From NCBI GenBank assembly GCA_017893485.1, contig CM030368.1, positions 173,692,004-173,756,003 on the forward strand: 64,000 nucleotides of DNA, given 5' to 3'. The notes beneath the pieces are model-generated. The model did not search any database and had not been told where the DNA came from. It was given only the letters and a program-made list of their open reading frames with translations. How positions within the stretch are numbered: position 1 is the stretch's first letter; each line of letters starts with the position of its first letter. Shown piece by piece: positions 19,409 to 29,264 of the stretch. The translations under genes and the position numbers were made by a program. The DNA comes from Hemerocallis citrina. Lineage: Eukaryota; Streptophyta; Magnoliopsida; Asparagales; Asphodelaceae.

Positions 19409-19811
19409 ATTATGAGCTGGTGAGCTCAGATCCTTATCGTGAGCTGGAGATCTGGGCCCTTTAATTTCGATCCAACGCACCTTATCGACTCTGCCCAAAT
19501 AAAATTTAATAGATGGGCATTCTGGTAATTTTTCAATGATCCCGAAAATCGATCCAACGCACCAGATCGATCTCCTCTTCTCAAAAATCGATCCCCAACT
19601 TGAGCTCCCCCAAAATCGTAACCCTAAGTTCCTTTTCTTCACTTCGGCCTCTCCCCTAATGCCTAATCCACCCGCATCCTCGCCGCTGAATCTCCCAAAT
19701 TGACCCTGAGGAGCATCGACGCAACCCCTTTCCATCTCCTCCATGCCCCTCTACATCTGCAATGGCACGGTTTGCACGCGGTGGTGGGAAGCTGTGGGTG
19801 AGAGTGATACC
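19409..19811 (+). repeat. Left TIR of the MULE
   Basis: Inverted copy of 28,841-29,264. The inner end is GGGAAGCTGTGGGTGAGAGT, matched by ACTCTCACCCACAACTTCCC on the right. Confidence 0.9.
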
Positions 19812-19894
19812 GGCAAATCAAATTTGATGCAACCCATGAGGAATTGCAACTACAACCCATGATTTCAATCGAATCCCAACAAACCCAGATCGAC

Positions 19895-20208
19895 TGATAC
19901 AGTTCTTAGAACTGTATCTTTTTAGCGTATCAGTCCTCGAGGAATTCTCTTTAAGGGGTTTATTCGCAAAGTTCGTGGTTTTTTGTAATAAAGTCCACGG
20001 GCTTGCATGTGCTAGTGTTTTCTTCTTCCTCCATTCTCTTTATATTGAGATGGGGCTTTTTGTATGAGGTTTATGTTGAATGAATTTAAATTAAAATCTT
20101 AGTTTTCTTTTCCTTTTTGTTCTGCTTTTGTTTGGTTTCATGGTGGCCACTGCCGGTGCCTTCCAAAGTTACAACGATCCACCACTGGGTTGGATCGGGT
20201 CTGTAACA
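19895..20208 (+). repeat. 5' LTR of the gene-capturing element
   Basis: 314 bp, TGATACAG...GTAACA. It ends directly before the primer site. Confidence 0.9.
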
Positions 20209-20222
20209 ATAGTATCAGAGCT
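20209..20222 (+). other. Primer-binding site (initiator Met tRNA type)
   Basis: ATAGTATCAGAGCT, one base from the usual TGGTATCAGAGC complement of the initiator Met tRNA 3' end. Confidence 0.85.
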
Positions 20223-20402
20223 CTTTTCCTCCCCACCGCTGCCATCTCGAAACCTTACCTCCGACGTCCGCCAATGCAATCCCTCCTCTCTTCATTGTCA
20301 ACCTCATAAACCCTCAAAACCCCCAAACCCATCTTCCCACCTCTGCTAACCACTGCCAAAATCATCCTCAAAACCCACAAATCCAAACTTCAACTATCGA
20401 CA

Positions 20403-20489
20403 ATGTCGGTGTTCGTCGGCGTCCTCATCTCCGACCACTGGCTCCAGGACCAGTTCACCCAAGTTGAGCTTTGCAACCTAAACGCCCTC
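20403..20489 (+). pseudogene. Captured N-terminus of a plant fimbrin
   Basis: An ATG opens 29 codons, MSVFVGVLISDHWLQDQFTQ then VEL, closely resembling the conserved start of plant fimbrins (actin-bundling proteins). A TGA follows at 20,490, where family similarity stops. It includes the presumed start codon, so capture took in the 5' end of the transcript. Confidence 0.75.
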
Positions 20490-20820
20490 TGACACGCCGA
20501 TCTCACCTCCCCTATCTCCACCCTCATATCCGATGCTCACCCCCTCAAGTCATCTTCCCAAAATGCCCCCCACTTCGCCGGCTCCACTTCTCCCCACATC
20601 CACAGCGACTGCCTCTTCCAAATATGCAGTACTTGCTCCTGCTACTGCTGCCCCCTATCCGCTATGTGGCTCCACCTCATTTGTTCGACGAAATTCTCCA
20701 GAGAAATAGGAAGTCAACTCCTCAAACATCAACCCTACTTCCTCAAGCTCCAACCGCTCACCAGGTATTCGACCAAATGCTCCTTCAATTCCATCAAACC
20801 AGATCGCCCATGAACTTGTG
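20490..20820 (+). other. Proline-rich unassigned segment
   Basis: Low-complexity, C-rich sequence with several open frames but no recognised family. It lies between the fimbrin and ZZ pieces and may be another captured fragment, perhaps a proline-rich N-terminus. Confidence 0.35.
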
Positions 20821-21358
20821 TTAGAGTACTATTACAATCTTTGTCTTGCTAATTGTACCTACAAACGGTACCAATGCAACACTTTGCGAGATTATGATTT
20901 GTGCCTCGATTGTTTCACTCGTGAAGGATTGGAGTTGAGATCGACTCCATTGAACTTCAGTAGTTATATAGAGGATGAGGAAAGGGAATTTGATGTGCTA
21001 GAATATTGGTGCAATCGTTGTTTCGCTATTTGTACCGACGAGCACTACCGCTGCATTAAATTCCTTAGCTGCTATTTGTGCCCCGCTTGTGTGACTAATG
21101 AAGAATTTGAATTGGGTTCGACTCCGAGAGACCTTGTAAAGATGTTGGGTAGTCAAGGAGTTTCACCTACACAAGTTGATGTTATTTCTGAAAATATAGT
21201 TCAAGTGTTGGAAGATGTGAGAACCCAAATTGATCGAAGGGTAGTTGACAGAACGGAATTTAGTATGCAGTATGATACTACGCAAAGTGATTCTAGATTT
21301 CATTTGAGTGATAAAGAGCGAGCTAATACTTCAGGAAGTCATGTTGAGATCAAAGAGT
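20821..21358 (+). pseudogene. Captured ZZ zinc fingers, SWI3D-like, in tandem
   Basis: Two related ZZ-type units: LEYYYNLCLANCTYKRYQCN with DYDLCLDCF (20,821-20,960), and LEYWCNRCFAICTDEHYRC with CYLCPACV (20,998-21,100). Spacing of the Cys pairs and the trailing 'F/L-x-STP' stretch resemble the ZZ finger of plant SWI3D, a SWI/SNF chromatin subunit. A charged tail (VISENIVQVLEDV) follows to a stop at 21,358. The source gene for the tail is not recognised. Whether the two units came from duplication inside the element or two captures is open. Confidence 0.6.
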
Positions 21359-21659
21359 AGAATCCAGAACCGAAAAGAAACTTCCCCACAGATTGATGAA
21401 ACCCAAATTGGCATTAGTGGAAGCTTCCAGGGTGATTCTAGCTCTGCATTAGAATCAGTACGTGAAGATGAAGATTCAGATCTTGCAACTGATCCAGCTG
21501 CTACAGAAGTCACCGACGATGTTTCTACTGTGGAACACTTGAAGCATCCACTATATATTTCAGCAGGGTCATATACAAACATCAAGGTATCAGCACTCAC
21601 TGAACATATCACGGTGCCAGAAACTGGAACAAATGCTGATGTGGATGGTGTGCATGTTG

Positions 21660-22290
21660 GTGTGTTGATGGATAATGCATCTCCTCAGCCCGTGCCACTT
21701 TCTTCGGGTTCAATTCTGCCAACATCATCTCCACCTTTTCATTTGGATGGGTCTGCGGAGATACCAATGCAACAATTGTCGATCATCGATGAATTGGCTT
21801 ATGAATCTCCGTATGCGCACTTTTCTGCTTATAAGGTATTGAAACGTAAGAAGCTAGCATATGTCTCAAGCTTGGGATTTGGAGCATTGATCTCTACTGG
21901 GAGAGAGGTAGTACCTGGTCCTGAGGTAGTACAACGTGATCCTCATCGCTACAAGAATTGTAGAGCTTACGTAAATTCATATAGTGAGATTTTACTGGGT
22001 TCCGGTCAATGGCAATGTGTAATTTGCAAGAAACTCAACAAAAGCGATGAAGAATGTGTAGCATCTAGCAAGGAATATCTTCTCCGACATTGGCCAGAAC
22101 TAGCAGTTTCAGCTATTGGTTATGTTTAGACTGGGAATAAACGGCCAGTGTTTATGCCTGTCTCTGATTTAAGAATGTCAGCACCTATATTTCTCTTCAT
22201 TGATGAGTGCTTAGATGAAGCCCATCTTCAACACTTACAAGGCTCTTTGCATGCTTTCTTCGATTCATTTCCCCCTACTACTAGAATTGG
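21660..22290 (+). pseudogene. Captured SEC23 N-terminal fragment
   Basis: About 200 codons without introns match the N-terminal half of plant SEC23, the COPII coat GTPase-activating subunit: SAYKVLKRKKLA, SLGFGALIS, the zinc-finger segment LLGSGQWQCVICKKLN, TGNKRPVFMPVSDLRMSAPI, DECLDEAHLQHLQ, SFPPTTRIG. The frame opens upstream at 21,308. One in-frame TAG (22,127) stands where Gln is expected before TGNKRP. First-pair Cys residues of the zinc finger are altered (KNCRAYVNSYS). At TRIG the sequence passes directly, in frame, into the Spinster fragment. Confidence 0.88.
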
Positions 22291-22810
22291 TGTTGGTGAG
22301 GCTTCTTTCATTAGTCTTGTAGCCCCATTTATTGATGATAATGCCCCTGTAGCTCAGAAAACAGTTTGGCTTGCACTCTCCTACATGTGTATACCTACTG
22401 GCATTGCACTTGGTTATGTATATGGTCGACTGGTTGGGAGTCCTCTCTGCTGGTGCTATGCATTTTTGGGGGAGTCAATTATGATGCTCCCTTTTTCTAT
22501 TCTAGGCTTTGTATGAAGCCTTTGCAACTAAAATGTTTTGCTTCATCAGCAGCTAAAAAGGGGAAAGAACGTGGGGAAACTACTGTTCCTGGTACTCAAG
22601 CAATTAAGCATATCGCTATTTAGATGATGGGAACTCTAAAATTGAGGCATCACCTGGGGAGAAAAGTGATGAAGCACCAAAAGGAGGTGGTGCTGTTCAA
22701 AAGGTTCTTGCTCATGTTGCAAGTTTTTAAAAAGACATTAAGCTCCTTTTGGCTGAGAGGATGTATGTCATAAATGTTCTAGGCTATATTGCATACAACT
22801 TTGTTACAGG
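22290..22810 (+). pseudogene. Captured Spinster-like transporter fragment
   Basis: VGEASFISLVAPFIDDNAPV, YMCIPTGIALGYVYGRLVGS and ESIMMLPFSILGFV match plant Spinster-homolog (SPNS) major-facilitator transporters. After a 1-base loss at about 22,515, MKPLQLK resumes in another frame. LLAERMYVINVLGYIAYNF (22,745-22,805) is the next transmembrane block. No introns are seen. The piece is joined in frame to SEC23 upstream and, after a short linker, to the eIF5-mimic piece downstream. Confidence 0.85.
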
Positions 22811-22849
22811 AACTATATCTTGCATGGCATCACTTCTGAATACTTACAG

Positions 22850-23333
22850 TACTTCCAAGGATAATCTCCTTGACTTCTTTCCAAGTTCGGAGCACTCTGC
22901 AGAAGGTTTCTCTGAGCATTTCACCAAGGAAGGATTGGTATCTCTGGTTGAGTACAATGAGAAGAAAATGTTTGTGGTGAAGCTAAAGGAGATGAAATCT
23001 GCATTTACTACTCAAATCGCGAAAGAGACTGATATTTCTGAAGTCATCGAGACAGTTAAGCAGCGAGTTAAAGATGCAAAGGTTTCTGATATTGAGGTAG
23101 TGCGCATCTTGTGGGATGCACTAATGGGTGCTGTTCAGTGATCTGGCAAGAATCAACAGCAAGATGCAAATGCTGTACTTCACCAGGTGAAAACATGGGC
23201 TGAATTTTTGAATGTATTTTGTCCGAGCGGGAAGCTGGAACTTGAACTCATGTACAAGGTTCAGATTCAGTGCCACGAGGATGCCAATTTATTGAAGTTA
23301 TTCCCGGAGATTGTCAGGTTTCTATATGATCAG
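22850..23333 (+). pseudogene. Captured eIF5-mimic (BZW/W2-domain) fragment
   Basis: DNLLDFFPSSEHSAEGFSEH, EGLVSLVEYNEKK, KEMKSAFTTQIA, DISEVIETVKQRVKDAK, VEVVRILWD-type and LKLFPEIVRFLYDQ blocks match plant eIF5-mimic proteins, whose W2 HEAT-like domain binds translation initiation factors. One reading frame runs from 22,749 to 23,492 with a single TGA at 23,139-23,141, where Trp (TGG) is expected. About 160 codons are intronless. The catalogue of joins suggests cDNA origin. Confidence 0.88.
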
Positions 23334-23471
23334 CTGAGGTCAGCAACTGAGGCAAGACACTTCACTTTTGATCCAGGAGGATGGAGGCACATGGTCGCGT
23401 ATTTGGGGATGTTTTGGGAGGGGTCTTTTAAGGTTGAAAAAGATCGTCACATTGACCTTGAGGACAAGGTC
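23334..23471 (+). other. Unassigned coding-like tail before the polypurine tract
   Basis: The frame continues after the eIF5-mimic piece (LRSATEARHFTFDPGGWRHM ... RHIDLEDKV). No family recognised. It may be the only remnant of the original element's protein, or a sixth capture. Confidence 0.3.
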
Positions 23472-23489
23472 AAATTAAGGGGGAAGGAT
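23472..23489 (+). other. Polypurine tract
   Basis: AAATTAAGGGGGAAGGAT directly before the 3' LTR. Confidence 0.8.
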
Positions 23490-23814
23490 TGATACAGTTC
23501 TTAGAAGTTAGAACTGTATCTTTTGTGCGTATCCGTCCTCGAGGAATTTTCTCTCTTTTAGGGGTTTATTTGTAAAGTTTGTGGTTTTTTTGTAATAAAG
23601 CCCACGGGCTTGCACGTGCTAGTGTTTTCTTCTTCTTCCATTCTCTTTATATTGAGATGGAGCTTTTTGTATGAGGTTTATGTTGAATGAATTGAAATTA
23701 AAATCTTAGTTTTCTTTTCCTTTTTGTTCTGCTTTTGTTTGGTTTCATGGTGGCCACTGCCGGTGCCTTCCAAAGTTACAACGATCCACCACTGGGTTGG
23801 ATCGGGTTGTAACA
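23490..23814 (+). repeat. 3' LTR of the gene-capturing element
   Basis: 325 bp, TGATACAG...GTAACA, followed by TCGAC, which repeats the five bases before the 5' LTR. Confidence 0.9.
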
Positions 23815-23853
23815 TCGACCCACAAGAATTGACATGGAATCAATGGCCAAAAT

Positions 23854-25320
23854 TTGGGCACGAATCTCGATGCATCAATGGGAGAGTCGGATGAGCCGGT
23901 GGTTCCCATGGAGGGACAAGAACCTGTTCTTGGGATGGAATTCGATACCCCGGATGCTGCACGGAGGTTTTATTCGGCCTATGCGGAAAGGATTGGATTT
24001 AGGGTGAAGAATAGTAAGTTGTTCACTTCGCGGGTGGATGACACTGTGATCACGAGGAGGTTCGTGTGCTTGAAGCATGGGAGGCCGACAAAGAAAGACC
24101 CATTTGATTTGAGTAAGAAGAGGAGGAATAGGGTTTCATCGCAGGAGGGGTGCAAGGCTATGATGCAGGTGAGGGGTTAGAATGTGATTTGAATTGAATG
24201 ATATTGTCGAATTATTCATGAGCATATTGAAACTTCGTATGTTGTAGGAATTATTAGAGAGTAGTGCTCATTTTTGTTATAATTGCAATGGTTTGCTTGG
24301 ATGAGTAGTTACTCTTATCTTTAATGAATTTCTTTAAACTTTCGTCGTGAATTTTCTCTAAAATCTTCACATGTTGTTGCTATCATGTGAATTACTTGAT
24401 GGTTAACTAGACATCTCTTGATCCTAGTGAAAAAAGATGAACATCTGGAAAATTTGAGAAGCTTGTTTAGTCATAGCTGGACATTTTTATTGTGATGAAT
24501 GAATCACTGAATTATGTTATTATTCATTTGATTATGAGCCGTTAGAAGCTCATTTTATTGTTAAGAATTAGTCATAATACGTACTCGAAATTTAACCTTG
24601 TTATCTGATTATAAAAGACTTGATTGATAGTGTCTTCAGCGCAGTATGTCTTGGTCTAAGTGATGTCTATTTTCTCCTGTCCAGTGAACATAACTAGATG
24701 ACAAGCATGTGTTATGCATGTATGTTATTCATCTACAATGGTTTTTTGAGTAACATTCTCATAATATTTGTTAAATATTTGTGAATGAATTATGATCATA
24801 TGAGTGCATGATGCATTTAGCGATGTTAGTCATTTTTCAAGGTTGGCTTCACATACTCTACAGGCTTCAGACACCCTATAGGTTGGCTTCCCACATGAAT
24901 TGGAGTTATCATAGTAAGGGTGTAGTATTTGTACTTTTTTTTTCATCCATATATTTTATTGCCAGTTTCTACTTTGCTTTAATATTTACCTTTTTAAAAA
25001 ATAATTCAGATACTGGCTTATAGCTGTAGTTTTCTTACTTTCATATTTGTTACTATGTTGCAGGTCAACTGCCGTAAGAATGGTCGATGGGTTGTCTCAA
25101 GATGCGCTATTGAGCACTGCCATCCTCTTGGTGTTGTTCTCAGGCTTCCCTTGCAGATAAACCTTGGGAACTCATTGTTCCAACTAGCACTGCAGACTCA
25201 CAGCAAAATGGTCTGGGACCTGGTGGTGGTGTAGCCCAGAGTCTTTTTTGGAGTATTTTAAGAAAATGCAAGCAGAAAATCCCGCATTTTTCTATGCAAT
25301 TCAACTTGACAGAAACAACT
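23854..25320 (+). pseudogene. FAR1/FRS gene fragment with intron, inside the MULE
   Basis: Exon 1 (about 23,854-24,168) encodes the FAR1 DNA-binding domain: VLGMEFDTPDAARRFYSAYA, ERIGFRVKNSKLF, RRFVCLKHG, EGCKAMMQ, followed by GT at 24,169. Exon 2 starts at 25,064 after CAG and continues VNCRKNGRWVVSRC, HCHPLGVV (the WRKY-GCM1-type zinc-binding Cys and His). A frame change follows. [20 protein letters not shown] (about 25,246-25,305) is the start of the transposase-like domain of FRS proteins, after which similarity ends. FRS proteins are transcription factors derived from MULE transposases. The start is cut by the nested LTR element. The retained 895-bp intron means genomic, not cDNA, capture. 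It could also be the MULE's own decayed transposase. Confidence 0.8.
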
Positions 25321-28840: not shown

Positions 28841-29264
28841 GATATCACTCTCACCCACAACTTCCCACCACCGCGTGCATACCGTGCCATTGCAAATGGA
28901 GAGGGGCATGGAGGAGATGGAGAGGGGTGGAGAGAGGTTGCGTCGACGCTTCTCAGGGTCGATTTCGGAGATTCAGCGGCGAGGATGCGGGGTGGATTGG
29001 GCGTCAGGGGAGAGGCCGAAGTGCAGAAGAGGAACTTAGGGTTTCGATTTTGGGCGAGCTCAAGTTGGGGATCAATTTTTTGAGAAGAGGAGGAGATTGA
29101 TCTGGTGCGTTGGATCGATTTTCTGAGTGGGGTTCATTGAAAAATTACCATAATGCCCCTCTATTAAGTTTTATTTGGGCGGAATCGATCTGATGCGTTG
29201 GATCAAAATCGAAGGGCGCAGATCTCTAGCTCACGATAAGGATCTGAGCTCACCAGGTCATAAT
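28841..29264 (-). repeat. Right TIR of the MULE
   Basis: Inverted copy of 19,409-19,811, ending ...GAGCTCACCAGGTCATAAT. Confidence 0.9.

What the first reader, a model, noticed from the sequence alone, without database searches (positions are those of the whole stretch)
19895..23814. LTR retrotransposon that carries pieces of at least five host genes
Seen: matching LTRs, initiator-Met-type primer site, polypurine tract and a perfect TCGAC duplication. The interior has no gag-pol but contains fimbrin, SWI3D-like ZZ, SEC23, Spinster and eIF5-mimic fragments, all in plus orientation and without introns. Known: maize Bs1 is an LTR element with several transduced cDNA pieces; such multi-gene cases are rare. 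Inference: template switching between packaged host mRNAs during reverse transcription built it.
Basis: partly seen in the sequence, partly recalled or inferred. Interest (0 to 1): 0.93.

Follow-up and report, generated by a model that had tools for sequence, protein, structure and literature searches.

The report
Jumping element stitched from plant genes
A small plant jumping element carries pieces of about six unrelated plant genes, at least two of them copied from spliced RNA, and relatives in the same genome carry pieces of other genes, so this family seems to shuffle host genes through RNA.

Summary
The core observation holds. Window 19890-23819 holds a 3,920-bp LTR element: LTRs of 314 and 325 bp (12 substitutions in 313 aligned bases), perfect TCGAC duplication, tRNA-type primer site, polypurine tract; no gag-pol domain was found. 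The ZZ match is weak and need not be SWI3D; "fimbrin" rests on recall. In the same 3.78-Gb genome the SEC23 and 5MP parents have introns that the element lacks exactly at 3 of 3 tested joins, so these two pieces came through spliced RNA. The assembled unit moved: copies on C2 and C10 have their own perfect duplications. Relatives carry other cargo: PDCD2, DNAJC9, thymidylate synthase, Nrap, GAUT, MA3. One sibling keeps an 858-codon frame with one stop, but whole-frame dN/dS is about 1. Best reading: a non-autonomous family assembled by repeated template switching onto host mRNAs, like maize Bs1 but larger and modular. Spinster, MCT, fimbrin and ZZ parents and the autonomous partner were not found.

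The parts
19890..19894 (.). target-site duplication, left copy (TCGAC)
   Evidence: read directly; equals 23815-23819
19895..20208 (+). 5' LTR, 314 bp, TGATACAG...GTAACA
   Evidence: further LTR places in the same genome
20210..20222 (+). primer-binding site TAGTATCAGAGCT; relatives on C2, C10 and C6 read TGGTATCAG there
   Evidence: complementarity to initiator-Met tRNA is recalled
20282..20526 (+). 5' module with a UTR-like stretch and the fimbrin-like start (20403-20489); shared with a C9 relative, not matched in the C1/C2/C10 siblings
   Evidence: L023 93% over 20282-20526; fimbrin identity recalled only
20818..21126 (+). two tandem ZZ-like zinc-finger units, 177-nt period, in frame
   Evidence: (ZZ E 0.031, below cut-off)
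21127..21499 (+). unidentified coding-like stretch; window copy lacks 80 nt at about 21359 that C1, C2 and two C10 siblings have
21500..21595 (+). fragment of plastid MCT/IspD (2-C-methyl-D-erythritol 4-phosphate cytidylyltransferase)
   Evidence: PDB 2ycm, 1w77; E 2e-8 to 4e-8
21676..22293 (+). SEC23/SEC24-family cDNA fragment
21835..21836 (+). exon-exon join where both SEC23 parents (C1, C2) have a 90-bp GT-AG intron
22286..22806 (+). Spinster-type (SPNS/MFS) transporter fragment with frame changes in the window copy
   Evidence: 22286-22441 by PDB SPNS2 and Pfam OATP; the rest is my reading of frames
22858..23332 (+). eIF5-mimic protein (5MP) cDNA fragment; window copy lacks 114 nt at about 22858 that five relatives have, bounded by GGATAATCT repeats
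22924..22925 (+). exon-exon join; parents have 1,256-bp (C4) and 1,022-bp (C5) GT-AG introns
23186..23187 (+). exon-exon join; parents have 1,943-bp (C4) and 1,144-bp (C5) GT-AG introns
23337..23489 (+). unidentified 3' tail, open in the 5MP frame up to the LTR, shared by relatives with other cargo; polypurine tract at about 23472-23489
23490..23814 (+). 3' LTR, 325 bp
23815..23819 (.). target-site duplication, right copy (TCGAC)

Best explanation
It is a non-autonomous LTR retrotransposon whose interior, in place of gag-pol, consists of cDNA pieces of about six unrelated host genes. Its RNA was packaged together with spliced host mRNAs, and the reverse transcriptase, supplied by an unknown autonomous partner, switched template repeatedly; each product kept the LTRs, primer site and 3' tail and so could be integrated and copied again. 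Repeating this gave a family with a common frame (LTR, leader, 3' tail, often 5MP) and exchanged host-gene middles. Shown: element anatomy, intron loss at exact splice sites for two genes, the same multi-piece unit at other sites with their own duplications, other cargo in relatives. Inferred: co-packaging, template switching, trans-mobilisation, order of captures.
For: Element anatomy with perfect duplication. Parents in the same genome have introns of 90 to 1,943 bp that the element lacks exactly at GT-AG sites, 3 of 3 joins (parents; one SEC23 parent shows zinc-finger, trunk, beta-sandwich and helical domains). Parents lie on C4 and C5 (5MP) and C1 and C2 (SEC23), the element on C11. The multi-piece unit recurs: C2 (GAATC) and C10 (CCTTG) copies have their own perfect duplications. 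Two relatives with LTR pairs and perfect duplications carry other cargo: L053 GAUT_1 5e-15, L052 MA3 1e-5; four relatives sharing the 5MP-tail-LTR end have other cargo upstream: PDCD2 and DNAJC9 in L017, Nrap in L014-L016, thymidylate synthase in L014 and L016. The 114-nt stretch missing from the window copy is bounded by a short repeat, as slippage in reverse transcription would leave.
Against: Template switching was not observed, and junction microhomology was not tested, since the Spinster and MCT parents were not found. No autonomous partner was found in a partial look (40 of 338 LTR candidates scored). Intron loss is shown for two of about six parents. Losses of 80, 114 and 162 nt between copies show rearrangement by other routes too. 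For L014-L017 no LTR pair was found in the fetched stretch, so their cargo is placed inside the element by the shared 3' end alone. Identities to parents are similar for SEC23 and 5MP (about 92% in the window copy), so stepwise capture cannot be told from one event by age.
Confidence: 0.85

Rival explanations
1. Gene pieces were captured at the DNA level, as by Pack-MULEs or Helitrons, and later enclosed by LTRs.
For: An inverted repeat pair of about 420 bp, 87% identical, flanks the region at 19409-19809 and 28843-29264, so a DNA-transposon-like structure is nearby.
Against: Introns are missing exactly at three splice joins in two genes. The pieces lie between LTRs with a 5-bp duplication, and sibling units at other sites have their own LTRs and duplications. 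No 8-11 bp duplication with at most one mismatch was found at the ends of the inverted repeats.
Confidence: 0.04
2. Separate processed copies (LINE-type retroposition) of each gene inserted one after another into an LTR element.
For: Would also give intronless pieces.
Against: The identified pieces are all in sense orientation; the SEC23 and 5MP pieces start and end inside coding sequence and I saw no polyA run at their ends on reading. The same arrangement recurs on other contigs as a unit. Short duplications around single pieces were not searched for.
Confidence: 0.05
3. Read-through transcription from an element copy next to host genes, with splicing, transduced the neighbours (classical transduction).
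For: Accepted for some plant elements in the review PMC13317346 (passages).
Against: It needs the parents to be neighbours of element copies, each capture being a separate event; the SEC23 and 5MP parents are on different contigs. Whether element copies lie beside the parents was not tested.
Confidence: 0.06
4. The fused frame is a domesticated chimeric gene kept by selection, as claimed for maize Bs1.
For: A sibling on C1 has 858 codons in one frame with one stop across ZZ, MCT, SEC23, Spinster and most of 5MP; the 5MP-tail part alone gives dN/dS of 0.45 to 0.70 in four comparisons, one of them with an interval below 1 (0.21-0.98); ORF content exceeds 300 of 300 shuffles in 8 of 8 interiors tested.
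Against: Whole-frame dN/dS of the C1 copy is 0.83 to 1.11 against four siblings and 1.05 against the window copy without the 5MP end, with intervals that include 1; stop changes match neutral expectation, for instance 4 seen against 4.6 expected; of 25 changed positions in the window 5MP piece 12 are conserved ones, chance 10.9, against 0 to 5 in the seven homologues printed.
Confidence: 0.08

Closest known systems
Maize Bs1
   Same: LTR element with segments of several host genes joined into a fused frame; the review PMC13317346 gives three genes (passages)
   Different: Here about six pieces from other genes, in a family whose relatives carry different sets. The primary paper PMC2899935 was not held.
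Soybean TRIM element GmaRetroS15 (PMC4717578, passages)
   Same: LTR element with exon-only pieces of three host genes; 5-bp duplications are reported for such elements
   Different: The gene-carrying TRIMs there are 1,172-1,449 bp; this one is 3,920 bp with more pieces, and siblings have long fused frames and swapped cargo
Maize LTR elements with gene fragments (PMC2774510, passages)
   Same: Host gene fragments inside intact LTR elements
   Different: The paper reports 425 such elements and, under its conditions, no case with fragments from more than one standard nuclear gene
VejuL and BARE2 template-switch products (PMC1950507, passages)
   Same: Proposed mechanism: reverse transcriptase jumping between two packaged RNAs
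   Different: Not described there as joins to host mRNAs
Pack-MULEs and Helitrons (recalled; passages in PMC13317346, and PMC4717578)
   Same: Families that carry pieces of many host genes
   Different: DNA transposons; Pack-MULEs contain introns as well as exons; here introns are gone at the tested joins and the unit has LTRs

Membership tests
LTR retrotransposon | Paired LTRs with TG..CA ends and a 5-bp target duplication | tested here: met
LTR retrotransposon | tRNA primer site next to the 5' LTR and polypurine tract next to the 3' LTR | tested here: met
   (tRNA sequence recalled)
LTR retrotransposon | Own gag-pol (autonomous members) | tested here: not met
   no such Pfam match (plus-strand frames); hence filed as a non-autonomous derivative
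Bs1-like transducing element | Host gene segments without the parent introns | tested here: met
   3 of 3 joins in two genes; other parents not tested
Bs1-like transducing element | Segments from several host genes in one element | tested here: met
   four pieces tool-supported, two weak or recalled
Bs1-like transducing element | Fused frame expressed as protein | not testable with these tools
   no RNA or protein data; whole-frame dN/dS about 1
TRIM | Very small LTR element | tested here: not met
   3,920 bp with LTRs of 314-325 bp, above the 1,172-1,449 bp given for gene-carrying TRIMs in PMC4717578
Pack-MULE | Terminal inverted repeats with a 9-bp duplication enclosing the cargo, introns kept | tested here: not met
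   introns absent at three joins; no 8-11 bp duplication at the flanking inverted repeats

The most novel reading that the evidence does not exclude
This genome hosts a lineage of LTR elements that works as a standing RNA-level exon shuffler: a fixed frame of LTR, leader, primer site and 3' tail into which spliced host mRNA pieces are repeatedly exchanged, with successful progenitors being those whose whole interior stays one open frame (RNA-level selection, for instance escape from nonsense-mediated decay), so that it issues new in-frame multi-gene fusions.
Probability: 0.3. Interest if true: 0.92.

Novelty: new variant of a known kind. Interest (0 to 1): 0.8.

Why it matters
LTR elements that pick up host mRNA pieces are known, but multi-gene cases look few: three genes in Bs1 and in GmaRetroS15 (passages), none among 425 maize elements under that paper's conditions. 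Here one element holds about six, six more gene families above Pfam cut-offs turn up in its relatives, and two parents and several siblings sit in the same assembly. That makes open questions testable: how often reverse transcriptase jumps to host mRNA, whether short matches guide it, whether in-frame fusions are favoured, and how raw material for new genes arises.

Tried and rejected
Protein searches for the ZZ stretch found nothing. PDB and Pfam gave no identity for the 3' tail, the fimbrin-like start or the linker stretches. A text search for fimbrin peptides found nothing. Exact scans of viral and prokaryote contigs for one LTR stretch gave 0 matches. The flanking inverted repeats as a Pack-MULE were considered and rejected for want of a duplication. 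The extra stretches of 80 and 114 nt in siblings were first taken for possible introns and rejected on reading them: they are coding-like sequence missing from the window copy. My notes give 105 for the second; the recount gives 114. A domesticated gene was set aside on whole-frame dN/dS and stop counts; against this, the 5MP-tail part gave 0.45 to 0.70 in four comparisons, one interval below 1.

Rows dropped or invalid: the row '5MP_tail' for C1 against the window is misaligned by the 162-nt difference and its window total is inflated, so repeats that comparison without the 5MP end (641 codons, 1.05, interval 0.66-1.85); the ZZ row against C10b there is also inflated by a rearrangement in that copy, as is its substitution count. 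In one search codons with gaps or stops were left out. In one search, 10 of the 120 listed 5MP proteins were left out by length. The gag frame next to L017 belongs, on my reading, to a different Ty3-type element.

Not answered: the parent search for Spinster. Parents of MCT, fimbrin and ZZ were never searched for on their own; the whole-element DNA search scored only 40 of 964 candidates.
Full report
Anatomy. The element occupies 19895-23814. Its LTRs (19895-20208 and 23490-23814) differ at 12 of 313 aligned bases with four indels, K2P 0.039. With a recalled rate of about 1.3e-8 per site per year that is roughly 1.5 million years, with wide error. The differences are uneven: 2 of 12 lie in the right half (p 0.013). 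TCGAC flanks both sides, a tRNA-type primer site follows the 5' LTR and a purine tract precedes the 3' LTR. No gag, protease, integrase or reverse transcriptase domain was found in the plus-strand frames scanned.

Cargo. In order: a fimbrin-like start (recall only), a tandem pair of ZZ-like units (E 0.031), an unidentified stretch, a 32-residue MCT/IspD piece (E 2.1e-8), a SEC23/24-family piece, a Spinster piece, a 5MP piece (E 3.5e-81) and an unidentified tail ending at the LTR. The ZZ units differ at 42 of 132 bases with dN/dS 0.40 or 0.54 by two methods, which fits duplication in a parent gene rather than decay in the element; with 44 codons this is weak. So the single-ZZ SWI3D label (that SWI3D has one ZZ is recalled) is not supported. 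The best 5MP matches listed are monocots such as Asparagus, Iris and palms.

Parents and splice joins. The window lies at C11:173692004-173756003 of a 3.775-Gb assembly. Two SEC23-family genes (L027 on C1, L028 on C2) with long open exons have a 90-bp GT-AG intron exactly where the element reads straight through at 21835|21836; the 618-residue exon of L027 carries zinc-finger, trunk, beta-sandwich and helical domains. 5MP genes on C4 and C5 have introns at 22924|22925 (1,256 and 1,022 bp) and 23186|23187 (1,943 and 1,144 bp), absent from the element. The C4 gene is the closer parent (88-93% by exon, 92% overall, against 83%). Thus 3 of 3 tested joins show precise intron loss, in two genes.

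The unit moves. Copies with the same MCT-SEC23-Spinster-5MP order occur on C1, C2 and in a C10 cluster; the C10 copies may be local duplicates. Of 18 loci examined, six showed an LTR pair: four of these had perfect 5-bp duplications (GAATC on C2, CCTTG on C10, ATCAC on C2, CAATC on C6), one had one mismatch (L013), one none (L009). L013, about 240 kb from the window element, has TCAAC/TCGAC and, on my reading of its frames, a similar flank, so I take it for a segmental duplicate of the same insertion with a nested insert. The window copy lacks 80 nt at about 21359 that C1, C2 and two C10 siblings have, and 114 nt at about 22858 that these four and the C7 relative have; the latter is bounded by GGATAATCT. 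C1 and one C10 copy lack 162 nt at 22951-23112 relative to the window; C2 and another C10 copy lack about ten more.

A modular family. The window's 5' module (20282-20526) is shared with a C9 relative (93%) and, at 76%, with relatives on C664 and C10:232 Mb, while the C1, C2 and C10 siblings gave no match over about 20262-20520. L014-L016 (C5, C6) and L017 (C7) share the 5MP-tail-LTR end but have other cargo upstream: Nrap_D4 (7e-8 to 8.5e-7) in all three of L014-L016 and thymidylate synthase (1e-15, 1e-14) in L016 and L014; PDCD2_C 3e-22 and DNAJC9 HTH 2e-18 in L017. For these four no LTR pair was found in the fetched stretch. L052 and L053 have LTR pairs with perfect duplications around MA3 (1e-5) with weak TPR, and GAUT_1 (5e-15) with a sub-threshold HAD hydrolase match (7e-5); L053 ends in the same tail. 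Splice joins of these other cargoes were not tested.

Fused frames and selection. The C1 sibling has one frame of 858 codons with one stop from before ZZ into 5MP. Five-longest ORF sums exceed 300 of 300 shuffles in 8 of 8 interiors tested, two of them partial; pieces of coding genes would give much of this without selection. Whole-frame dN/dS of C1 against four siblings is 0.83 to 1.11, and 1.05 against the window without the 5MP end, with intervals that include 1. Against this stands the 5MP-tail part: 0.70, 0.45, 0.57 and 0.53, of which one interval (0.21-0.98) lies below 1. Stop changes equal neutral expectation (4 against 4.6, 5 against 3.4, 7 against 8.0, 4 against 3.6, 3 against 3.7), and the window 5MP piece changes conserved positions as often as chance (12 of 25, expected 10.9). 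So the copies look neutral since dispersal, with a hint of constraint at the 3' end, while most stops being private suggests that the progenitor had an open fused frame. Selection on progenitors for an open frame is possible but not shown; I did not count junction frames family-wide.

Mechanism. Intron loss means RNA. Sense orientation, SEC23 and 5MP borders inside coding sequence, common LTR ends and exchanged middles fit copy-choice between co-packaged RNAs, the model proposed for Triticeae elements in PMC1950507 (passages). Serial LINE insertions, DNA-level capture and neighbour read-through fit less well (see rivals). The reverse transcriptase must come from elsewhere; no partner was identified, and the LTR search scored only 40 of 338 candidates.

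Literature. Seen as passages: PMC13317346, PMC4717578, PMC3726574, PMC2774510, PMC1950507, PMC7264820. In the open-licence library, searches listed no paper that I recognised as describing an LTR element with more than three host genes; I judged by listings, and most subscription papers are missing.

Noticed in passing
window 19409-19809 and 28843-29264: Inverted repeat pair of about 420 bp, 87% identical, flanking the element and a FAR1-domain reading frame. No 8-11 bp duplication found.
   Followed up: partly
window 23833-24177: FAR1 DNA-binding domain frame (Pfam 5e-16) starting just after the 3' LTR; the element may sit in its upstream region.
   Followed up: partly
L013: Likely segmental duplicate of the window insertion about 240 kb away, with a nested insert of about 4.1 kb bounded by 183-bp repeats 97% alike.
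   Followed up: partly
window 19895-20208 against 23490-23814: LTR differences are concentrated in the left half (10 of 12), the right half is nearly identical.
   Followed up: no
L011, L012 and L018-L021, C10:227.24-227.41 Mb: A cluster of related copies on C10 within about 170 kb, perhaps a tandem or segmental array.
   Followed up: no
window 20818-21126: Tandem ZZ-like units with third codon positions changed most (9, 15 and 18 differences by position), from an unidentified parent gene.
   Followed up: partly
L017 3166-4293: Ty3-type gag frame (Ty3_capsid 1e-15), probably of another element, directly beside the C7 relative.
   Followed up: partly
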